This document shows, one piece after another, positions 1 through 49,817 of a DNA stretch of 64,000 bases; position 1 is the first letter of the stretch; each line of letters begins with the position of its first letter. The stretch is from NCBI RefSeq assembly GCF_028416635.1, contig NZ_CP114013.1, positions 1,612,001 to 1,676,000 of the forward strand, read 5' to 3'. This stretch comes from Baekduia alba. GTDB taxonomy: Bacteria > Actinomycetota > Thermoleophilia > Solirubrobacterales > Solirubrobacteraceae. The notes under the pieces are model-generated. The model did not search any database and was not told where the DNA came from. It saw only the letters and a list, made by a program, of their open reading frames with translations. A program made the translations under genes and the position numbers.

Positions 1-66
1 GACCTCCTCGCGCGCCGCGGCGCGAAGACGGGGCTCGAAGGCACCCGCCTGGGGACCGGCAAGTGA
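1..66 (+). CDS. C-terminal end of an upstream gene, possibly a PstA-type permease
   Basis: Frame 1 is open from the window edge and ends at TGA 64-66, leaving 21 residues that finish in the basic, glycine-rich tail RLGTGK. The stop overlaps the GTG start of the next gene (GTGA), so the two are translationally coupled. Because the next gene is a PstB-like ATPase, this is plausibly the end of a phosphate ABC permease, but the visible tail has no diagnostic motif. Confidence 0.5.
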
Positions 67-1031
67 TCATCGACGAGGAGACCAAGGACGTGTCCATCCC
101 GACGGGCGACCCGCGGGCCGAGGGCGCCGCGCTGCCCGAGCGCGCCGCGCCGGTCGTCCCGCCGATCCGCAAGATCGTCGTCGACCGGCACCCGACGGTC
201 GCGCCGGCCGCGGCGGTCACGACGCACCCCGGCGGCTACGCCGGCGTCGGACCGAGCGCAGCGCGCGGCGAGCCCGGACCGGAGCGCATGGCGCTCCAGG
301 GGCTGTCGGTGTTCTACGGCGACAACGAGGCGGTCAAGCAGGTGTCGCTCTCGATCCGGCTGGGCGAGGTCCTGGCCTTGATCGGGCCGTCGGGCTGCGG
401 CAAGACGACGCTGCTGCGGACGCTGAACCGCCTGACCGAGCTGACGCCCGGCGCCGCGCGCGGCGGCACGATCCTGCTCGACGGCATCGACGTCGACGCG
501 CTGGAGGTCACCACGCTGCGCCGCCGCGTGGCGATGGTCTTCCAGCAGCCCAACCCGTTCCCGATGTCGATCTTCGACAACGTGGCCTACGCGCTGCGCG
601 AGCAGTCGCGCAAGCGGCCGGGCCGGCGCGTCGTCGAGCCGCTGGTCGAGGACGCGCTGCGCCGCGCCGGCCTGTGGGACGAGGTCAAGGACAAGCTCGA
701 CGCGCCCGCGCTGCGCCTGTCCGGCGGCCAGCAGCAGCGCCTGTGCATCGCGCGCGCCATCGCGACGCGGCCCGAGGTCCTGCTGATGGACGAGCCGTGC
801 TCGGCGCTGGATCCGCGCTCGACCGCGGTCATCGAGCAGCTGATCGGCGAGCTGCGCACCGACCTGGCCATCGTGATCGTCACCCACAACATGCAGCAGG
901 CCCGGCGCGTGGGGGACAAGGTCGCGTTCATGTACCTGGGCGACCTGGTGGAGTACGGCCCGGCCGAGCAGATCTTCGACGCGCCGCAGGCGCAGCGCAC
1001 GCGCGACTACGTGCGCGGGGCGTTCGGGTGA
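63..1031 (+). CDS. pstB: PstB-like phosphate ABC transporter ATPase (first copy)
   Basis: This 322-aa ATP-binding subunit probably powers phosphate import. An Ala/Pro-rich N-terminal extension of about 75 residues precedes a complete ABC domain. The domain has Walker [10 protein letters not shown], a PstB-type Q-loop ([15 protein letters not shown]), the signature LSGGQQQR, Walker [12 protein letters not shown] and the H-loop THNMQQA. PstB proteins are usually about 250-270 aa, so the extension is extra. The GTG start overlaps the upstream stop, and its own TGA overlaps the next GTG. A second, canonical pstB lies at 7667-8569, so the genome has at least two Pst-type ATPases. The substrate is inferred from family motifs. 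Confidence 0.85.
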
Positions 1032-3348: not shown

Positions 3349-3978
3349 TCAGCGGCGGTTCTTGCGCTTCAGCGAGATGCCCTCGAGCACGTGGGCGACC
3401 TTCTCGCAGGCGTCCACGCTCTGCTCGAGCGTCTCGAAGATGTCCTTCCAGCGGATCACGACCATCGGGTCGATGCCGTTGGCGAAGAGCGACGCGACCG
3501 CGTCGCGGCTCAGGCGGTCGCCCTCGTTCTCCAGGCGGTGGATCTCGACCAGGTGCGGCGCGATCTCGGCGCCGGAGCGCAGGCAGCGCAAGGCCTGGGC
3601 GACCTGCTCGCCCGCGCCGACGAGGACGTCGGCAATCAGGTTCGCCTGCTCCATCGGCGCCTCGACGGCGTACAGCGACAGCTCGTCGGCGGCCTGCTCG
3701 GCGTAGTCGACGATGTCGTCCAGCGCGGTCGCCAGCACGTGGCCGTCGGCGGGATCGAGCGGCGGCTTGCCGCGGCCGCCGCCGTTGAGGCGATGGATGA
3801 TGTCGTGCGTGATCCGGTCCCCCTCCTGCTCGGAGAGCAGCAGGTCGCGGGCCAGGTCGGAGCGCTCCGGGTACTCCAGGAACAGGTCGCGCAGGAGCAG
3901 CGTCGCGCGCTGGACGTTGCGGCCGGACTCCTCGATCAAGTCGAGGACCATCGTGTCGGTCGTGCGGAACAGCGCCAT
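3349..3978 (-). CDS. DUF47/PhoU-like phosphate transport regulator
   Basis: A 209-aa all-helical protein of the DUF47 (Pit accessory, PhoU-fold) family. Recurrent acidic metal-binding helices are visible: LLLSEQEGDRITHDI, ALDDIVDYAEQAADEL and HRLENEGDRLSRDAV. Such proteins usually accompany Pit permeases; no pit gene lies beside this one. The ATG at 3978 has a hexamer reading TAAGGT on the minus strand (3988-3993) nine bases upstream. The four-copy PHO-box array at 4021-4064 lies in the shared intergenic space, so phosphate control is likely. Confidence 0.85.
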   Translation of the reverse strand: MALFRTTDTMVLDLIEESGRNVQRATLLLRDLFLEYPERSDLARDLLLSEQEGDRITHDIIHRLNGGGRGKPPLDPADGHVLATALDDIVDYAEQAADELSLYAVEAPMEQANLIADVLVGAGEQVAQALRCLRSGAEIAPHLVEIHRLENEGDRLSRDAVASLFANGIDPMVVIRWKDIFETLEQSVDACEKVAHVLEGISLKRKNRR

Positions 3979-4020: not shown

Positions 4021-4064
4021 CTTCACAGGTCGTTTACATGGGGTTCACCGGACGGTCACCGGCG
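4021..4064 (+). promoter_or_regulatory. PHO-box array of four tandem 11-bp repeats
   Basis: Four consecutive 11-mers can be read without gaps: CTTCACAGGTC, GTTTACATGGG, GTTCACCGGAC and GGTCACCGGCG. They match the 11-bp direct-repeat units (G-T/G-TCAC type) bound by PhoP/PhoB regulators in Streptomyces. The array sits in the 115-bp gap between the divergent DUF47 gene and the orphan regulator gene at 4094, so it could control both. Confidence 0.75.
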
Positions 4065-4093: not shown

Positions 4094-4453
4094 ATGGAGG
4101 CTGCGCAGTCAGACGATGTGCTGTTCGCCGGAGAGCTGGAGATCCGGCCGGGCGACGGGCTGGTGCTCGCCGCCGGGCGTGCGCTCACGCTCTCGGTCCG
4201 GGAGTTCGGGTTGCTGGTCGCCCTCGTGCGGCGCTCGGGGCGCATCGTGTCCCGCGGCGACTTGTACACGTTGGTGTGGCACGCGGAGCTGCGTGACGGC
4301 GATCGCTCGATCGACGTGTACGTGCACAAGCTGCGCGTGAAGCTCGAGACGGCCCTGCCGTCGTGGGCGTTCATCCACACCCATGTCGGCTTCGGCTACC
4401 GGTTCTCACCCGAAGCTTCACACGTCTTTCACAACTCGACCACACCGCGATAA
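4094..4453 (+). CDS. Orphan PhoB/OmpR-type DNA-binding domain without receiver
   Basis: A 119-aa protein consisting only of an OmpR/PhoB-type winged helix (about residues 8-109). It has the recognition region GDRSIDVYVHKLRVKLE and the terminal wing FIHTHVGFGYRF. These closely resemble GDRSVDVFVRKLRQKLE and YIHTHFGVGYRF in the response regulator encoded at 9365-10219, so the two are paralogous. There is no receiver domain or membrane segment. It lies between a four-repeat PHO box and pstS, and the pstS PHO box overlaps its last codons. It may bind PHO boxes without phosphorylation, as a competitor or constitutive activator; that is inference. Confidence 0.8.
   Translation: MEAAQSDDVLFAGELEIRPGDGLVLAAGRALTLSVREFGLLVALVRRSGRIVSRGDLYTLVWHAELRDGDRSIDVYVHKLRVKLETALPSWAFIHTHVGFGYRFSPEASHVFHNSTTPR
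4416..4437 (+). promoter_or_regulatory. PHO box of pstS
   Basis: Two adjacent 11-mers, CTTCACACGTC and TTTCACAACTC, are followed by a weaker third unit GACCACACCGC (4438-4448) and a GATAAC hexamer at 4449-4454. The pstS start lies at 4511. The box overlaps the 3' end of the orphan regulator gene. Confidence 0.65.
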
Positions 4454-4510
4454 CAGGATGTGGTCGTTGCCGCTTCACCCTGCCGGGCGACAACGAATCT
4501 AGGAGCAACC

Positions 4511-5620
4511 GTGAAGTCCCGAATCCTTCCCGCCGCGTTCGCGGCCGCCGCTCTGGCCACCGGCCTCGCGGCCTGCGGCAGCAGCGACGACGACAGCTCG
4601 ACCAACAGCTCGGCCTCGGGCTCGGACGCCCAGGCGGCGGTCACCGCGACGCTCAACGGCGCGGGGTCGACGTTCGCCGCCCCGATCTACCAGCAGGTCG
4701 GGTCCGACCTGAAGGGCAAGGGACTGACGATCAACTACCAGGGCGTGGGCTCGGGCGCCGGCGTGTCGCAGTTCGCGGCCGGCACGGTCGACTTCGCGGG
4801 CTCCGACCCGGCGCTGACCGACGACGACACGGCCAGCATCAAGAAGGGCGAGCCGGTCCAGATCCCATTTGCGCTCGGCGCGATCACGGCGTCCTACAAG
4901 CTCGGCGGCGTCGACTCCGGGCTGAAGCTCGACGGCTCGACGCTCGCGAACATCTACCTCGGGAAGATCACCTCCTGGGACGACGCCGCGATCAAGGGCC
5001 AGAACCCGGACGTGCAGCTGCCGTCGACGAAGATCACCGTCGTCCACCGCTCGGACTCCTCGGGCACGACGAAGGGCTTCACGCAGTTCCTGGCCAACTA
5101 CTCGCCGGCGTGGAAGAGCGGCCCGGGTGTCGACAAGGACATCAAGTGGCCGACCGGCACCGGCGCCAAGGGCAACGACGGCGTCGCCGCCGCAGTCAAG
5201 CAGACCGACGGCGCCATCGGCTACGTCGAGCAGGCCTACGCCCTGCAGAACGGCTTCACCTTCGCCGACGTCAAGAACAAGTCGGGCAAGTACATCGCCC
5301 CGACGCTGGAGTCGACCTCGGCCGCCGCCGAGGGCATCGAGATCCCGGCCGACCTCGGCGTCTCGACGATCGACGCGCCCGGCGCGAGCGCCTACCCGAT
5401 CGTCTCCCAGACGTTCGCGATCGCCTACAAGGACGCCTGCAAGGCCGGGCTGGACAAGAACAAGGCCACGGGCCTGAAGACGTTCTTCAACTACCTCATC
5501 AACGACGGCCAGGACACCATCAAGAAGCTGTCCTACGCGCCGATCCCCGACAGCCTCAAGACCAAGGACCAGGCGGCCGTCGACGCGATGCAGTGCAACG
5601 GCGCCGCGATCACGAGCTGA
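4511..5620 (+). CDS. pstS: Phosphate-binding lipoprotein PstS
   Basis: A 369-aa high-affinity phosphate-binding lipoprotein. The GTG at 4511 follows an AGGAG ribosome site (4501-4505) and gives a signal peptide with lipobox LAAC at about residue 20. A Ser/Asp linker precedes the binding fold, which shows the family motifs NGAGSTFAAPIYQQ, YQGVGSGAGV, FAGSDPAL, HRSDSSGTTKGFTQFL and the late segment AIGYVEQAYAL. These are the residues that grip phosphate in PstS. It is the first gene of the pst operon, with a PHO box upstream. Its TGA overlaps the first 18-codon micro-ORF instead of leading straight into pstC. Confidence 0.95.
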   Translation: MKSRILPAAFAAAALATGLAACGSSDDDSSTNSSASGSDAQAAVTATLNGAGSTFAAPIYQQVGSDLKGKGLTINYQGVGSGAGVSQFAAGTVDFAGSDPALTDDDTASIKKGEPVQIPFALGAITASYKLGGVDSGLKLDGSTLANIYLGKITSWDDAAIKGQNPDVQLPSTKITVVHRSDSSGTTKGFTQFLANYSPAWKSGPGVDKDIKWPTGTGAKGNDGVAAAVKQTDGAIGYVEQAYALQNGFTFADVKNKSGKYIAPTLESTSAAAEGIEIPADLGVSTIDAPGASAYPIVSQTFAIAYKDACKAGLDKNKATGLKTFFNYLINDGQDTIKKLSYAPIPDSLKTKDQAAVDAMQCNGAAITS

Positions 5621-5676
5621 TGACGCAGACGGAGAAGATGACGGTTGTCGAAGTGATCGCCGAGATCGGGAGCTGA
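5620..5676 (+). CDS. 18-aa micro-ORF, copy 1
   Basis: ATG at 5620 overlaps the pstS stop codon by one base (TGATG). It encodes MTQTEKMTVVEVIAEIGS and stops at 5674-5676, which overlaps the next ATG. The peptide has no signal sequence or membrane segment. Residues 8-16 are hydrophobic with two acidic residues and could form a short amphipathic element. Coding is supported by perfect stop/start coupling on both sides, but translation is unproven. Confidence 0.5.
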   Translation: MTQTEKMTVVEVIAEIGS

Positions 5677-5732
5677 TGACGCGGACGGAGAAGATGACGG
5701 TTGTCGAAGTGATCGCCGAGATCGGGAGCTGA
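5676..5732 (+). CDS. 18-aa micro-ORF, copy 2
   Basis: Second copy of the tandem micro-ORF, coupled at both ends by TGATG. It differs from copy 1 only by Gln3 to Arg. The cgggagc motif ending copy 1 lies just before this ATG and could help ribosomes restart. Because the period is 56 bp, this copy is in a different frame from copies 1 and 3. Confidence 0.5.
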   Translation: MTRTEKMTVVEVIAEIGS

Positions 5733-5788
5733 TGACGCAGACGGAGAAGATGACGGTTGTCGAAGCGATCGCCGAGATCGGGAGCTGA
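5732..5788 (+). CDS. 18-aa micro-ORF, copy 3
   Basis: Third copy, differing from copy 1 by Val12 to Ala. Its TGA (5786-5788) overlaps the ATG of pstC. This makes an unbroken chain of coupled ORFs from pstS through three micro-ORFs to pstC. A change in copy number would leave the pstC frame intact. Confidence 0.5.
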   Translation: MTQTEKMTVVEAIAEIGS

Positions 5789-6798
5789 TGGCGACCGCCA
5801 CCCCTGACGTCAGCACCGGCGGCCGCTCCATCCTGGAGCGGTCGCCGTCGGCGCGTCGCGCGGATCCGATCTTCCGCGGGACGCTGATGACGCTCGCCGC
5901 GTTGATCCTGGCGCTGATCGCGTTCTTCTTCGTCTACCTCATCAACAAGGCGCAGCCGGCGCTCAGCCACCAGGGCGTCTTCTCGTTCCTGTTCACGAAC
6001 GACTGGAACCCGTCCAAGGCGATCTACGGCGCGTGGCCGCTGGTCGTCGGGACGCTCGTCACCGCGGCCATCGCGCTGGTCATCGGCGTGCCGATCGCCG
6101 TGGCGACCGCGCTGTTCATCACCGAGCTGGCGCCGCGCCGCGTGCGCTCGCCGCTGGTCATCCTGGTGGAGCTGCTCGCCGCGGTCCCGTCGGTCGTCTA
6201 CGGCCTGTGGGGGATCTTCGTCCTGATCCCGAAGCTCAAGCCGGCCGAGCAGTGGTTCGCGGACACCTTCAGCTTCCTGCCGTTCATCGGCGGCAACGTC
6301 GCCGGCCCCAACTACTTCGTCGCCGGCCTGATCCTGGCGATCATGATCCTGCCGATCGTCTCCGCGATCTCGCGCGAGGTGATCTCGACGGTGCCGTCCG
6401 ATCTCAAGGAGGCGTCGCTCGCGCTGGGCGCGACGCGCTGGGAGATGATCCGGATGGCCGTGCTGCCGTACTCGCGCTCGGGCATCACCGGCGCCGCGAT
6501 GCTCGGCCTGGGCCGCGCCATCGGCGAGACGATCGCGGTGACGCTGGTCATCGGCAACTCGCCGACCATCGGCAAGCAGATCTTCGACCAGGGCTACACC
6601 CTGGCCGCGGTCATCGCCAACGAGTTCGGCGAGGCCGCCAACGACAAGGTCCACGCGGGCGCGCTGTTCGCCGCGGGCCTCGTGCTGTTCGTCCTGACGC
6701 TGCTGATCAACGCCTTGGCGCGCGGGCTCGTCCGCCGCGCCGAGAAGTCGGCCCGCCCACCCACCAAGGTCAAGGCCGTGCCCGGGGGTGTCGCATGA
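5788..6798 (+). CDS. pstC: Phosphate ABC transporter permease PstC
   Basis: A 336-aa inner permease subunit with six predicted membrane helices, the first near residues 32-55 after a polar N-terminus. It shows the family segments [39 protein letters not shown] (the EAA loop contacting PstB) and [20 protein letters not shown]. It pairs with PstA to form the phosphate channel. The ATG overlaps the stop of the third micro-ORF, whose cgggagc serves as the nearest ribosome site. Its own TGA overlaps pstA (ATGA). Confidence 0.95.
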
Positions 6799-7667
6799 GC
6801 GCCGTCAGCGCGCTGGGCCCGCTCAACGGGCGGCGCAAGGCCACCGACAAGATCATGCGCGGGGTGCTGGCGGTCGGCACGGTCATCGCGCTGATCCCGC
6901 TCGTGCTGGTCATCTACTACCTGCTGAGCAAGGGCCTCGGCGCGTGGTCGCTCGACTTCTTCACCAAGGATCCGACCGGCAACTTCCTCGGCGACCAGGG
7001 CGGCGTGAAGAGCGCGCTGCTCGGGACGATCGAGATGGTGGCGTTGGCCTCGCTCATCGCGATCCCGGTCGGGTGGGGCGTCGCGCTCTACCTGGTGGAG
7101 TACGGCCGGACCGGGCGCTTCGCCGCGACCGTCCGCTACTTCGTCGACGTCATGACCGGCGTGCCGTCGATCGTCTTCGGCCTCTTCATCTACGTGACGC
7201 TCGTGCTCAGCGGCTGGGGCGGATCGTCCTTCGCCGGTTGGAAGGGCTCCGTCGCCCTGGCGCTGCTGATGCTGCCGGTCGTCACCCGCTCGGCGGAAGT
7301 GGTCCTCCTGCTCGTGCCCGACCCGCTGCGCGAGGCCGCGCTGGCGCTGGGCACCCCGCGCTGGCGCGTGACGCTGAAGATCGTCCTGCCGACTGCGCTG
7401 CCCGGCCTGGTCACCGGCTCCCTGCTGGCCGTCGCGCGCGCCGCGGGGGAGACCGCGCCGCTGCTGTTCACGGCGACGATCGTCAACGGCACCACGTTCA
7501 ACCTGAGCGACCGCATGAACTCGCTCCCGGTCCAGATCTACACGGACGTGGGATCGCCCAACGACCAGCTCGTCCAGCGCGCGTGGGGCGCGGCGCTCGC
7601 GCTCGTGACCCTGATCCTCCTCACGACCCTCATCGCGCGGCTCGTGTCGCGCAGGAGCCGACTCTGA
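6795..7667 (+). CDS. pstA: Phosphate ABC transporter permease PstA
   Basis: A 290-aa permease, partner of PstC. Six hydrophobic helices begin near residue 25. Characteristic motifs are [16 protein letters not shown], the EAA loop [19 protein letters not shown], and [15 protein letters not shown]. The ATG at 6795 overlaps the pstC stop, and the TGA overlaps the pstB ATG (TGATG). The length and order are standard for pstSCAB operons. Confidence 0.95.
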
Positions 7668-8569
7668 TGAGCGACACGACCCCGGAAACGACCACCATGA
7701 CCGACGACGCTCGCACCTCCTCCGATGGGTCAGCCGGCGCGCCGCGCGCGCCGCTCCCCTCGCGCGGAGGGGCGACGGTCGCGGCGGCCCGGCCCGCGGC
7801 CACGGTCGCGCAGGCGGCCCCGGGCATCTCGGTGACGTCGCTGCAGGCCTTCTACGGCGCGGCGCACGCGATCAAGGACGTGTCCATCGAGTACGCGCCC
7901 AACCGCGTGACCGCGATGATCGGGCCGTCGGGCTCGGGCAAGTCCACCGTGTTGCGCTGCCTGAACCGCATGCACGAGGAGATCCCGGGCGCGCGCGCCG
8001 AGGGCACGGTCATGCTCGACGCCGACGACATCTACGGGCCGTCGGTCGACGTCGTCGCGGTGCGCCGGGCGGTCGGCATGGTCTTCCAGAAGCCCAACCC
8101 GTTCCCCACCATGTCGATCTTCGACAACGTCGCGGCCGGGCTCAAGCTCAACGGCATCAAGGGCGTCGACCTCAAGGAGCGCGTCGAGCAGTCGCTGCGC
8201 GGCGCCTCGCTGTGGGAGGAGGTCAAGGACCGCCTGAGCGAGCCCGGGATCGGGCTGTCGGGCGGCCAGCAGCAGCGCCTGTGCATCGCGCGGACGATCG
8301 CCGTCCAGCCGCAGGTCATCCTGATGGACGAGCCGTGCTCCGCGCTGGACCCGATCGCGACGCTGAAGATCGAGGAGCTGATCGAGGACCTCAAGCAGCG
8401 CTTCACGATCATCATCGTCACGCACAACATGCAGCAGGCCGCGCGCGTGGCCGACACGACGGCCTTCTTCCTGGCCGGCGAGCTGATCGAGCACGCGCCG
8501 ACCGACCAGGTGTTCACCAACCCTTCCGACTCCCGGACCGAGGAGTACGTCACCGGGAAGTTCGGCTGA
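7667..8569 (+). CDS. pstB: Phosphate ABC transporter ATPase PstB (operon copy)
   Basis: A 300-aa ATPase with an unusual Ala/Thr/Pro-rich N-terminal extension of about 48 residues before the ABC domain. It has Walker [10 protein letters not shown], the PstB Q-loop [17 protein letters not shown], signature LSGGQQQR, Walker [12 protein letters not shown] and the H-loop [10 protein letters not shown]. It energises PstCA. The ATG overlaps the pstA stop, and the gene is coupled to phoU by TGATG. It parallels the ATPase at 63-1031, which also has an N-terminal extension. Confidence 0.95.
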
Positions 8570-9267
8570 TGGCCGGCCCCGGAGCGACCCGCCAGCACTT
8601 CGCCGACGAGCTGCGGCGCGTCGAGGCCCAGGGCCTCGGCGGCCTCGACCTCGTCGTCGGGCAGATGGACAAGGTGCTCGAGGCGCTGGAGCACCAGGAC
8701 GTCGAGCTCGCCGCGATGGTCATCGGCAACGACGACTTAATCGACGGGCGCTACCTCGAGGTCCATCAGGAGCTGCTGTCGCTGTTCGCGCTCCAGGCCC
8801 CGGTCGCCGGTGACCTGCGGGTCGTGGCGGCGCTGCTGCACGTCATGAAGAACATCGAGCGCATGGGCGACCAGTGCGTGAACATCGCCAAGACGATCCC
8901 GCTGACGGGCCACGAGCCGCCGGTCCGCGAGGAGGTCCTGGAGCGCATCCTGAAGATGGGGCGCATGGCCCGGACCGAGGTCACGCAGTGCAAGGCGGCG
9001 TTCGCGAGCCGCGACGTCGACCTCGCCGAGGACCTGGTCCGCCAGGACCGCGAGATCAACCTGCTCAACCGCGAGATCTTCCAGCTCGCGATCGACGTGG
9101 GCACGGACTCGGACACGCGCGAGTGGGCGATGCACATGGTGATGGTCGCCCGCGCGATCGAGCGGATCGGCGACAACGCCGTGGACGTGGGGGAGCAGAC
9201 CGCGTTCGTGGTGACGGGGCTGTTCCGGGAGTTCTCGGACTCCTCGCACCCGCGGCCGCTCGTGTGA
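8569..9267 (+). CDS. phoU: Phosphate signalling regulator PhoU
   Basis: A 232-aa all-helical protein of two PhoU three-helix bundles with metal-binding helices. The motifs are VVAALLHVMKNIERMGDQCVNIA in the first bundle and MVMVARAIERIGDNAVDVGEQ in the second. PhoU links Pst transport to inhibition of the phosphate two-component response. It is the last gene of the coupled pst operon, with its start overlapping the pstB stop. No PhoR-type kinase gene is present in the window. Confidence 0.93.
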   Translation: MAGPGATRQHFADELRRVEAQGLGGLDLVVGQMDKVLEALEHQDVELAAMVIGNDDLIDGRYLEVHQELLSLFALQAPVAGDLRVVAALLHVMKNIERMGDQCVNIAKTIPLTGHEPPVREEVLERILKMGRMARTEVTQCKAAFASRDVDLAEDLVRQDREINLLNREIFQLAIDVGTDSDTREWAMHMVMVARAIERIGDNAVDVGEQTAFVVTGLFREFSDSSHPRPLV

Positions 9268-9287: not shown

Positions 9288-9309
9288 GGCTTGTGAAAAT
9301 GTCGTGACC
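9288..9309 (-). promoter_or_regulatory. PHO box upstream of the response regulator, reverse orientation
   Basis: Read on the minus strand, two adjacent 11-mers appear: GGTCACGACAT (9309-9299) and TTTCACAAGCC (9298-9288). Their TCAC cores are 11 bp apart, as in Streptomyces PHO boxes. They lie about 40 bp upstream of the -10-like TAGACT of the regulator gene, suggesting autoregulation. Confidence 0.5.
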
Positions 9310-9364: not shown

Positions 9365-10219
9365 ATGACGACGGAACGAGGCACGTCGGCTCAGCCCCTG
9401 CGGCTGGCCGTGATCGACACCGACTCGGGCTTCCTCCAGGTTCTGGACAAGCGGCTCGAGCGCCTTGGCTGGGAGCATCGGACGCTGGCCTCCGCCGTTC
9501 CGGTCGACACCATCGTGGCGATGCGCCTGAGCGCCCTGGTCGTGGACCTGGCGACGCTCGGCCCGTCGGGCTGGGACTACCTGCACCGCGTCTGCTCGGA
9601 GCTGCCGGGCCTGGGCGTGGTCGTCTGCACGGGGCAGTCGACGGTCGCCCAGCGCGTCCGCGGGCTGCGGCTCGGCGCCGACGACTGGCTGTCGAAGCCG
9701 TGCCATCCGGAGGAGCTGATCGCGCGGGTCGAGGCGGTCGTGCGCCGGCGCAGGCGGTCGGACGCGCGCTCTGAGCGCCGGCCGGTGGCCGCCGGGGAGC
9801 TGGAGATCCGGTCGGATCGCTTCCAGGCGTTCGTCGACGGTCGCTCGGTCGATCTGACGCGCCGCGAGTTCGAGCTGATCGAGCTGCTGGCCGGGTCCGA
9901 GGGCCGGGTCCTCGAGCGCGAGGAGATCTACCAGCGCGTGTGGGGCTACGCGATGGCGCGTGGCGATCGCAGCGTGGACGTGTTCGTGCGCAAGCTGCGC
10001 CAGAAGCTGGAGCGGGCGTCGCCGGAGTGGCGCTACATCCACACGCACTTCGGCGTCGGCTACCGCTTCGCGGCCGAGCCGGTCGAGGGCAGCGAGATCG
10101 CCGGGCGCGAGGCCGCCGCGGCGGTCGCCGAGCCCGCCGACGGTCCCGCGCCCGCGACGCTGCTGGGCATGGACGACGACGCCGGGCTCGCCGCCGAGCT
10201 GCGCGCGCTGACGTCCTAG
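9365..10219 (+). CDS. PhoB/PhoP-type response regulator
   Basis: A 284-aa two-domain regulator. The receiver spans about residues 13-125, with acidic residues at D18/D20 (VIDTDSG), the likely phosphoacceptor D61 (ALVVDLATLG), a switch Thr (VVCTGQS) and the conserved Lys in LSKPCHPEEL. The OmpR/PhoB winged helix spans about 140-240 and ends YIHTHFGVGYRF. A low-complexity acidic tail of about 45 residues follows. Its position after phoU, with a PHO box upstream, supports a phosphate role. No partner kinase is adjacent. RegX3 or another OmpR-family role is possible. Confidence 0.85.
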   Translation: MTTERGTSAQPLRLAVIDTDSGFLQVLDKRLERLGWEHRTLASAVPVDTIVAMRLSALVVDLATLGPSGWDYLHRVCSELPGLGVVVCTGQSTVAQRVRGLRLGADDWLSKPCHPEELIARVEAVVRRRRRSDARSERRPVAAGELEIRSDRFQAFVDGRSVDLTRREFELIELLAGSEGRVLEREEIYQRVWGYAMARGDRSVDVFVRKLRQKLERASPEWRYIHTHFGVGYRFAAEPVEGSEIAGREAAAAVAEPADGPAPATLLGMDDDAGLAAELRALTS

Positions 10220-10244: not shown

Positions 10245-10604
10245 GTGAACAAGACGCTGCGCAACGTCCTGATCATCGTCGCGGCCGCCGCGGCGGTCGC
10301 GTTCCTGCCGGGCGGCGGAGACACCGCCCAGCTGATCTCCGCCCTGCTGGGCATCGGGATCACCGTCATCTTCGTCCTGCTCGGGATCCGCTTCTACCGC
10401 GAGAACCGCGTGGCGATCTTCTCCCTGGGCGACAAGCACCGCGGACTCCTGTACGGGGCCCTGGGCGCGATCGTCCTGGCCCTGGCGGGCCGCGCGAAGC
10501 TGCTCGACACCGGCCTCGGCTCGCTCGTGTTCGTGTTGCTGCTGGCCGGCGCGATCGGCGCGCTGTACGCGGTGTGGCAGCACCACCGGGCGTACGGGTA
10601 CTGA
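10245..10604 (+). CDS. Small integral membrane protein, unknown function
   Basis: A 119-aa protein with four hydrophobic segments near residues 5-24, 27-46, 66-82 and 90-109. A basic loop (RFYRENRVAIFSLGDKHR) lies between the second and third. The GTG start follows the phosphate response regulator by 25 bp and has its own -10-like hexamer. No family is recognised. The GC-rich third positions agree with real coding. Confidence 0.65.
   Translation: MNKTLRNVLIIVAAAAAVAFLPGGGDTAQLISALLGIGITVIFVLLGIRFYRENRVAIFSLGDKHRGLLYGALGAIVLALAGRAKLLDTGLGSLVFVLLLAGAIGALYAVWQHHRAYGY

Positions 10605-47159: not shown

Positions 47160-49817
<2,658 letters not shown>

What the first reader, a model, noticed from the sequence alone, without database searches (positions are those of the whole stretch)
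4094..4453. Receiver-less PhoB-type DNA-binding protein placed between PHO boxes
The 119-aa protein is just the DNA-binding half of a PhoB-like regulator and is clearly paralogous to the effector of the regulator at 9365-10219. Without a receiver it cannot be switched by phosphorylation. It could compete for or lock PHO boxes, adding feedback not described in standard Pho systems. No PhoR kinase gene is in the window, so signalling here may be unusual.
Basis: inference. Interest (0 to 1): 0.6.

Follow-up and report, generated by a model that had tools for sequence, protein, structure and literature searches.

The report
Receiver-less phosphate regulator between PHO boxes
A small, evolutionarily conserved DNA-binding protein sits between two phosphate-control switches in an actinobacterium; it lacks the part that lets such regulators be switched by a sensor, and it may work as a brake on phosphate-uptake genes whose main regulator also looks unable to be switched in the usual way.

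Summary
ORF 4094-4453 (119 aa) is a lone PhoB/OmpR winged-helix domain, 49% identical to the DNA-binding half of the regulator at 9365-10219. It is no fragment: by score, 36 of 61 sampled genomes of its order carry it (7 of 7 in the genus), and it is under purifying selection. A PHO-type repeat array precedes it in 29 of 30 loci. In 24 of 30, the next box (that of pstS here) overlaps its last 11 codons and stop at one fixed position, forcing rare codons.
(1) The partner regulator is itself odd: in 26 of 26 orthologues the metal-binding acid DD2 is non-acidic (kept in 9 of 9 class-level relatives), and no histidine kinase was found in 34 order loci, against 5 of 7 outgroup loci. (2) The lone domain keeps its DNA-contact surfaces, but its polymerase-contact loop is only 54% identical, against 90% in the partner (same 19 genomes).
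Best reading: a Pho-regulated PHO-box occupant that competes with the activator, a feedback brake. Rivals: a constitutive amplifier or a cooperative tandem partner. DNA binding and direction of effect are inferred. New variant of a known kind.

The parts
4094..4453 (+). receiver-less PhoB/OmpR-type winged-helix protein (P0001, the lone domain)
   Evidence: AlphaFold model mean pLDDT 86.9 with canonical wHTH order, residues 1-4 and 112-116 under 50; PDB fold matches include PrrA and PhoB effector domain 1gxp
4021..4064 (+). four-repeat PHO-type array upstream of the lone-domain gene (CTTCACAGGTC GTTTACATGGG GTTCACCGGAC GGTCACCGGCG)
   Evidence: an array of three or more repeats within about 250 bp upstream in 29 of 30 loci against 62 of 4000 random windows
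4416..4459 (+). PHO-type array before pstS, overlapping the last 11 codons and the stop of the lone-domain gene; TAA 4451-4453 lies in the fourth repeat
   Evidence: first core at -34 from the stop in 24 of 30 loci
4454..4459 (+). possible -10 element of pstS (CAGGAT)
   Evidence: hexamer directly after the stop; CAGGAT or CAGACT in 15 of the 24 loci with the fixed overlap (counted); promoter role inferred
3349..3978 (-). PhoU_div (DUF47) protein, divergent neighbour
   Evidence: PF01865, 63.6 bits; divergent neighbour in 16 of 20 fetched loci (counted)
4511..5620 (+). pstS; start codon GTG 4511 chosen by me from the signal-like N-terminus
   Evidence: TIGR00975 338.7 bits for the ORF 4460-5620
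5788..6798 (+). pstC
   Evidence: TIGR02138 330.5 bits
6795..7667 (+). pstA, named by position and similarity only
   Evidence: reading frame located and matched in relatives; no family search run on it
7667..8569 (+). pstB, named by position and similarity only
   Evidence: reading frame located and matched in relatives; no family search run on it
8569..9267 (+). phoU
   Evidence: PF01895 122.2 bits; TIGR02135 149.4 bits, cut-off 130.25
9293..9308 (-). two-repeat PHO-type site in inverted orientation upstream of the full regulator
   Evidence: one mismatch; a similar inverted motif is visible upstream of the regulator in many of the sequences (looked at, not counted)
9365..10219 (+). full PhoB-type regulator with a degenerate receiver (P0002): D18, D61, T89 and K111 kept, DD2 position is T19

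Best explanation
P0001 is an old, working paralogue of the pst-linked PhoB-type regulator that consists of the DNA-binding domain alone. It is probably made when the PHO boxes are active, since its own gene has the best-scoring four-repeat array of the locus, and, having no receiver, it could bind DNA as soon as it is made. I think it mainly occupies PHO boxes without recruiting RNA polymerase well, so that it competes with the full regulator P0002 at the pstS box and at its own box: a feedback brake or limiter. Shown by computation: domain content, paralogy, conservation, purifying selection, repeat arrays, coding overlap, retained DNA-contact residues, relaxed polymerase-contact loop. Inferred: that the arrays are regulatory PHO boxes, that P0001 binds them, that it activates poorly, and that the net effect is negative.
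For: Lone wHTH domain and fold. In 20 loci fetched around it, the full regulator is in the locus in 20, phoU in 20, pst genes in 18. dN 0.037-0.061 against dS 0.39-0.56 (NG86, three same-genus pairs, tail left out). Array score 18 of 20 upstream against 17 of 20 at the pstS box; array upstream in 29 of 30 loci, background 62 of 4000 windows. Equivalents of R193, D196, V197 and R203 kept in 28 of 28, R201 as K or R in 28 of 28. In the same 19 genomes the recognition helix is 81% and the wing 89% identical in the lone domain, the loop 184-192 only 54%, no more than its beta platform (54%); in P0002 orthologues the loop is 90%, far above the beta platform (66%). Extra drop of the loop 0.216, bootstrap over genomes 5-95% 0.09-0.32. 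The G185 equivalent, tied to polymerase contact (passages of PMC3348028), is G in 17 of 28 lone domains against 26 of 26 partners. A PhoB effector without its receiver binds DNA constitutively (passage of PMC4415409 citing Ellison and McCleary 2000).
Against: W184 (28 of 28) and D192 (26 of 28), two of the four polymerase-contact residues, are kept, and V190 is not kept even in the partner. The loop is variable among OmpR/PhoB proteins in general (passage of PMC3960148), so relaxation does not prove loss of activation; alpha-2 of the lone domain is relaxed as well (57% against 88%); the 19 genomes are related, so the bootstrap is generous. R200 is H in 19 of 28 lone domains but R in 26 of 26 partners, so the two may not prefer the same sites. 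By score the gene is missing from 25 of the 61 sampled genomes (many are drafts). No binding or expression data exist.
Confidence: 0.45

Rival explanations
1. Constitutive activator, an amplifier: like an isolated PhoB effector domain, P0001 binds and activates without phosphorylation. Made after the first trigger, it keeps its own gene and pstS on (positive feedback).
For: A PhoB effector without its receiver binds DNA constitutively (passage of PMC4415409). The repeats lie where an activator could sit: about 20 bp between the second pstS repeat and the possible -10 (read by eye). W184 and D192 equivalents are kept.
Against: Loop 184-192 lacks the special conservation it has in the partner (54% against 90%); G185 is relaxed. 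Nothing was seen that would switch such a loop off.
Confidence: 0.27
2. Cooperative tandem partner: P0001 and P0002 sit side by side on the four-repeat arrays, P0001 filling some repeats and P0002 supplying the polymerase contact.
For: The upstream arrays have four repeats in 28 loci and five in 1, more than the two that one dimer needs. Repeats 3-4 of the pstS box are less regular than 1-2. Recognition helices are similar but not identical.
Against: In the own genome multi-repeat arrays also stand before pst2 and a TIM-barrel gene, so the arrays are not special to the lone-domain gene. No interface was modelled or tested.
Confidence: 0.18
3. Decaying duplicate, or an ORF that matters only because it carries the pstS box.
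For: The last 11 codons read as box sequence and the tail is unstructured in the model. By score the gene is missing in 25 of 61 sampled genomes.
Against: Purifying selection on the body without the tail (dN/dS about 0.08-0.16, NG86), 20 invariant columns over 28 sequences, an array of its own in 29 of 30 loci, and a second lone-domain clade.
Confidence: 0.04

Closest known systems
E. coli PhoB effector (DNA-binding) domain, solved as 1gxp
   Same: Same winged-helix fold (Foldseek E 8.9e-07, TMq 0.73); recognition-helix residues R193, V197, R203 kept; 11-bp direct repeats as sites.
   Different: A natural separate gene, not a truncated construct; wing reads THVGFGY where PhoB has TVRGTGY; polymerase-contact loop relaxed.
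Streptomyces PhoP PHO boxes (GTTCACC direct repeats)
   Same: Same repeat core and 11-bp unit (passage of PMC4415409).
   Different: The fourth repeat is mostly GTAAC upstream of the gene, and a box lies inside the end of a regulator gene at a fixed place in 24 of 30 loci.
Pseudo-receiver (atypical) response regulators such as ChxR and HP1043
   Same: Partner P0002 has a non-acidic DD2, the position that is non-acidic in about 80% of pseudo-receivers (passage of PMC12632262).
   Different: P0002 keeps D61, T89 and K111; it sits behind pst-phoU, and its paralogue has no receiver at all.
PhoB-PhoR / PhoP-PhoR two-component Pho systems
   Same: pstSCAB-phoU plus a PhoB-type regulator and PHO-type boxes.
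   Different: No linked kinase found in 34 order loci; in the own genome an outgroup Pho-locus kinase matches 20 places at 27-38% identity, 19 of them starting at residue 157-182 of 413, that is, over the shared catalytic core.

Membership tests
OmpR/PhoB-type winged-helix effector domain (P0001) | Trans_reg_C domain over its cut-off | tested here: met
   71.2 bits against 26.2
OmpR/PhoB-type winged-helix effector domain (P0001) | wHTH fold with N-terminal beta sheet and C-terminal wing | tested here: met
Response regulator (P0001) | receiver domain | tested here: not met
   no PF00072; the array and the start codon lie directly upstream
Phosphorylatable response regulator (P0002) | acidic DD1 and DD2, phospho-acceptor Asp, Thr/Ser, Lys | tested here: not met
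   DD2 non-acidic in 26 of 26 orthologues; DD1, Asp and Lys kept in 26 of 26, Thr/Ser in 24 of 26. Caveat: the next residue is D in 26 of 26 and might stand in as ligand
Pseudo-receiver protein (P0002) | recognised as receiver but lacking at least one of the five active-site residues | tested here: met
   (40.3 bits); definition from passages of PMC12632262
Pseudo-receiver protein (P0002) | activity independent of phosphorylation | not testable with these tools
   needs biochemistry
PHO box regulon (P0001 gene and pstS) | tandem 11-bp direct repeats at the promoter | tested here: met
PHO box regulon (P0001 gene and pstS) | response to phosphate limitation | not testable with these tools
   no expression data
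PhoB-PhoR two-component system | cognate histidine kinase, linked or recognisable in the genome | tested here: inconclusive
   none linked and no full-length match to an outgroup Pho-locus kinase in the own genome, but 26 HisKA matches exist there and an unlinked kinase could serve; the TIGR02966 cut-off passes only 1 of 14 controls, so it says little

The most novel reading that the evidence does not exclude
In this order the Pho response has left the phosphorelay: the linked PhoR was lost, the regulator's receiver lost its metal site, and receiver-less paralogues (two clades, with PHO-type arrays before 29 of 30 and 8 of 14 genes) took over part of the control, so that regulator amounts and box occupancy, perhaps with PhoU or PstB signalling directly to the pseudo-receiver, set pst expression.
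Probability: 0.35. Interest if true: 0.78.

Novelty: new variant of a known kind. Interest (0 to 1): 0.57.

Why it matters
The Pho response is the textbook case of PhoR-to-PhoB phosphate sensing. An actinobacterial order that keeps pst, phoU and PHO-type boxes but shows no linked kinase, a regulator without the receiver's second metal-site acid and a conserved receiver-less paralogue would show how such a circuit can be rewired. It would make testable how phosphate status is passed on without classical phosphotransfer; a recent perspective calls the regulation of pseudo-receivers a central unanswered question (passages of PMC12632262). The frame-locked overlap of a promoter box with the end of the regulator gene is a clean case of dual coding.

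Tried and rejected
Rejected: pseudogene or chance ORF (purifying selection, invariant columns, synteny). Rejected: truncation by an assembly fault (the gene stands behind its own array in 29 of 30 loci of as many genomes). Considered, not supported: spread of this lone-domain type from outside the order. Of 149 class genomes searched, 116 lie outside the order; their best match has 116 bits, against 160-203 bits for the lone domains of the order. Only seven of these places were inspected and all seven have receiver sequence beside the domain (in L120 in another frame); other lone domains outside the order were not looked for.

Led nowhere: genome-wide pattern scans gave only a handful of sites, too few to define a regulon; the TIGR02966 PhoR model cannot decide the kinase question. 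Ten paper searches (two of them found no paper) listed none on a receiver-less PhoB paralogue in a Pho system or on Pho control in this order. I saw titles and starts of abstracts, the library is open-licence only, so this is weak evidence of absence. Of five papers I saw passages only. The scan of genome contigs returned 8 loci, one of them (a Conexibacter MAG) a close relative.

Limits of counts: the lone-domain type was set by score; 30 genomes' best loci were analysed as sequence. L045 and L053 were dropped from alignment A1 (start unclear), leaving 28; rows L043, L044 and L051 begin after the start codon. G008 and G009 hold a second high-scoring place each, not analysed. The 20 loci were fetched because they hold the lone domain, so they say nothing about genomes without it. 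The 19 matched genomes leave out L078 and L081, whose lone domains were not in A1. The tree is quick, SH-aLRT only, with few columns: 47 of 89 inner branches are under 80; L116 falls outside the second clade. The outgroup is small (7 loci, no kinase found in L120 and L129). 'No kinase' rests on tblastn with three queries and four; as positive control the four queries gave the window's hybrid kinase for all four, E 6e-28 to 3e-20. The upstream-array background did not remove true sites.

Full report
What is there. The reading frame 4094-4453 (+) codes for 119 residues. It holds one Pfam domain, the PhoB/OmpR C-terminal winged helix, and no receiver. It is 49% identical over 96 residues to the DNA-binding half of the regulator at 9365-10219. 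An AlphaFold model from 28 sequences has mean pLDDT 86.9, the canonical strand-helix-wing order and a low-confidence tail; the nearest solved folds are PrrA, other OmpR/PhoB domains and the PhoB effector domain with pho box DNA.

Conservation. A protein search of 61 genomes matched in all, but most genomes also match through the full regulator. Taking best E-values up to 4.1e-33 as the lone-domain type, 36 of 61 genomes have it: 7 of 7 in the genus, 23 of 30 others in the family, 6 of 24 in other families of the order; the 25 others have best values of 1.9e-29 or weaker. One same-genus relative lies on a contig titled Conexibacter, placed by NCBI in Solirubrobacterales, Thermoleophilia; the window's genome itself is unnamed. 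Twenty loci around the lone domain were fetched: the full regulator and phoU are in the locus in 20 of 20, pst genes in 18 (not in L078, L079), the divergent PhoU_div neighbour in 16; pstS is recognised by similarity behind the gene in 11, and 7 have an unassigned gap of about 1 kb before pstC. In three (L075, L076, L081) the regulator is divergent and adjacent. In three same-genus pairs dN is 0.037-0.061 and dS 0.39-0.56 (NG86, tail left out).

PHO boxes and the overlap. Four 11-bp repeats (TTCAC-like cores, the last mostly GTAAC) lie upstream of the gene, and a second array lies over its end. With three mismatches allowed, the four-repeat pattern occurs at three places in the 5.86 Mb genome, control zero: these two and one upstream of a xylose-isomerase-like TIM-barrel gene. 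A three-repeat pattern adds the promoter region of a second pst operon just outside the window and one further place, control zero. An array of three or more repeats lies within about 250 bp upstream of the lone-domain gene in 29 of 30 loci (not L057), against 62 of 4000 random windows. In 24 of 30 loci the downstream array's first core begins 34 bases before the stop codon. There the Ser codon is TCA in 24 of 24 and the codon three further on is TTT in 21 of 24 (GTT in 3), although nine window genes use TCA for 2 of 174 Ser and TTT for 1 of 99 Phe. In three same-genus comparisons codons of unchanged residues are identical in 212 of 296 body positions and 38 of 38 tail positions, stop included. 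The tail is thus kept as DNA. L037 has an overlap at another offset; in L059 and L060 the array lies just behind the stop; in L054, L057 and L058 no good array of this kind lies over the end, and L051 scores only 14 of 20. CAGGAT or CAGACT directly after the stop in 15 of the 24 loci could be the -10 of pstS (inference).

Paralogues. A quick tree of DNA-binding domains puts 28 lone domains (SH-aLRT 90), 26 full regulators (94) and 13 of 14 members of a second lone-domain clade (92) in separate groups, inside one group of the order (85), with nine class-level full regulators outside it; many inner branches are unresolved. The duplication looks old. The second clade, seen in 14 loci, has arrays upstream in 8 of 14.

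The partner. In 26 of 26 orthologues of the 9365-10219 regulator the second acid of the metal site (D10 in E. coli PhoB) is T, S, A, G, R or N, while the first acid, the phospho-acceptor Asp and the Lys are kept in 26 of 26 and Thr/Ser in 24 of 26; nine of nine class-level relatives have both acids. The HMMER alignment with PrrA shows the same register. The next residue is Asp in 26 of 26 and might take over as ligand, so loss of the metal site is likely, not shown. The window's receiver scores 40 bits against Pfam, two outgroup receivers 98 and 108. By the definition in passages of PMC12632262 this is a pseudo-receiver. Kinase queries found none in 34 loci of the order, including the first 20 kb of this window, but one beside phoU or the regulator in 5 of 7 outgroup loci; they also find the hybrid kinase elsewhere in this window. 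In the own genome the kinase of L128 matches 20 places at 27-38% identity; 19 start at residue 157-182 of 413 and one at 126 (with a stop inside), whereas the kinases of L127 and L128 match each other over nearly their whole length at 56-58%. An unlinked kinase of another type cannot be excluded; the genome has 26 HisKA matches.

Function. DNA-contact positions are kept in the lone domain (R193, D196, V197, R203 in 28 of 28; R201 as K or R), with H198 as Y in 28 and R200 as H in 19 of 28; which PhoB residues touch DNA is recalled, not from a call. Of the four PhoB residues tied to polymerase contact (passages of PMC3348028), W184 is kept in 28 of 28, D192 in 26, G185 in 17; V190 differs in every group. 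In the same 19 genomes the loop 184-192 is 54% identical in the lone domains and 90% in the partners, the recognition helix 81% and 96%, the wing 89% and 97%, the beta platform 54% and 66%, alpha-2 57% and 88%; the extra drop of the loop is 0.216 (bootstrap 0.09-0.32). So the DNA-facing surface is guarded and the polymerase-facing loop is not. I read this as a DNA-bound competitor, made under PHO-box control, that limits the response. An amplifier is the main rival, because a PhoB effector without its receiver binds constitutively (passage of PMC4415409) and W184 and D192 are kept.

Known or new. All parts are of known kinds. I found no report of a receiver-less paralogue in a Pho system in ten searches of an open-licence library (listings only), which is weak evidence. 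I rate it a new variant of a known kind.

Noticed in passing
window 5602-5790: A 56-bp tandem repeat (3.4 copies, 95% matches) between pstS and pstC; each full unit reads as an 18-codon mini-ORF whose stop and the next start overlap as TGATG. In relatives L062 and L063 the pstS and pstC matches end 2 and 11 bases apart, so the repeat is probably recent.
   Followed up: partly
window 47160-49817: Hybrid histidine kinase (CHASE3, HisKA, HATPase, two receivers, Hpt), not PhoR-like in architecture.
   Followed up: partly
window 9293-9308: Inverted two-repeat PHO-type site before the full regulator; a similar inverted motif is visible upstream of it in many relatives (not counted).
   Followed up: partly
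window 10245-10604: 119-aa hydrophobic protein behind the regulator, no Pfam family; similar frame found in 13 of 20 relatives' loci.
   Followed up: partly
L143 1677-1714 (just outside the window) and window 63-1031: A second pst operon with PHO-type repeats before its substrate-binding gene; its ATP-binding gene lies at the window's left end.
   Followed up: partly
L142 1893-1930: Four-repeat PHO-type array upstream of a xylose-isomerase-like TIM-barrel gene: a possible Pho member of unknown role.
   Followed up: no
L153 about 3720-3757 (-): PHO-type array upstream of a 229-aa reading frame with a hydrophobic N-terminal stretch.
   Followed up: no
L110-L119, L065, L066, L068, L074: Second group of receiver-less PhoB-type proteins in the order, 14 loci; 8 of 14 have PHO-type arrays upstream.
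   Followed up: partly
L069 regulator region: Receiver and DNA-binding parts of the full regulator lie in different frames in this draft genome: assembly error or a real split.
   Followed up: no
L006 (own genome, 5539674-5539895): Another OmpR-type protein whose N-terminal part looks like a degenerate receiver (by eye).
   Followed up: no
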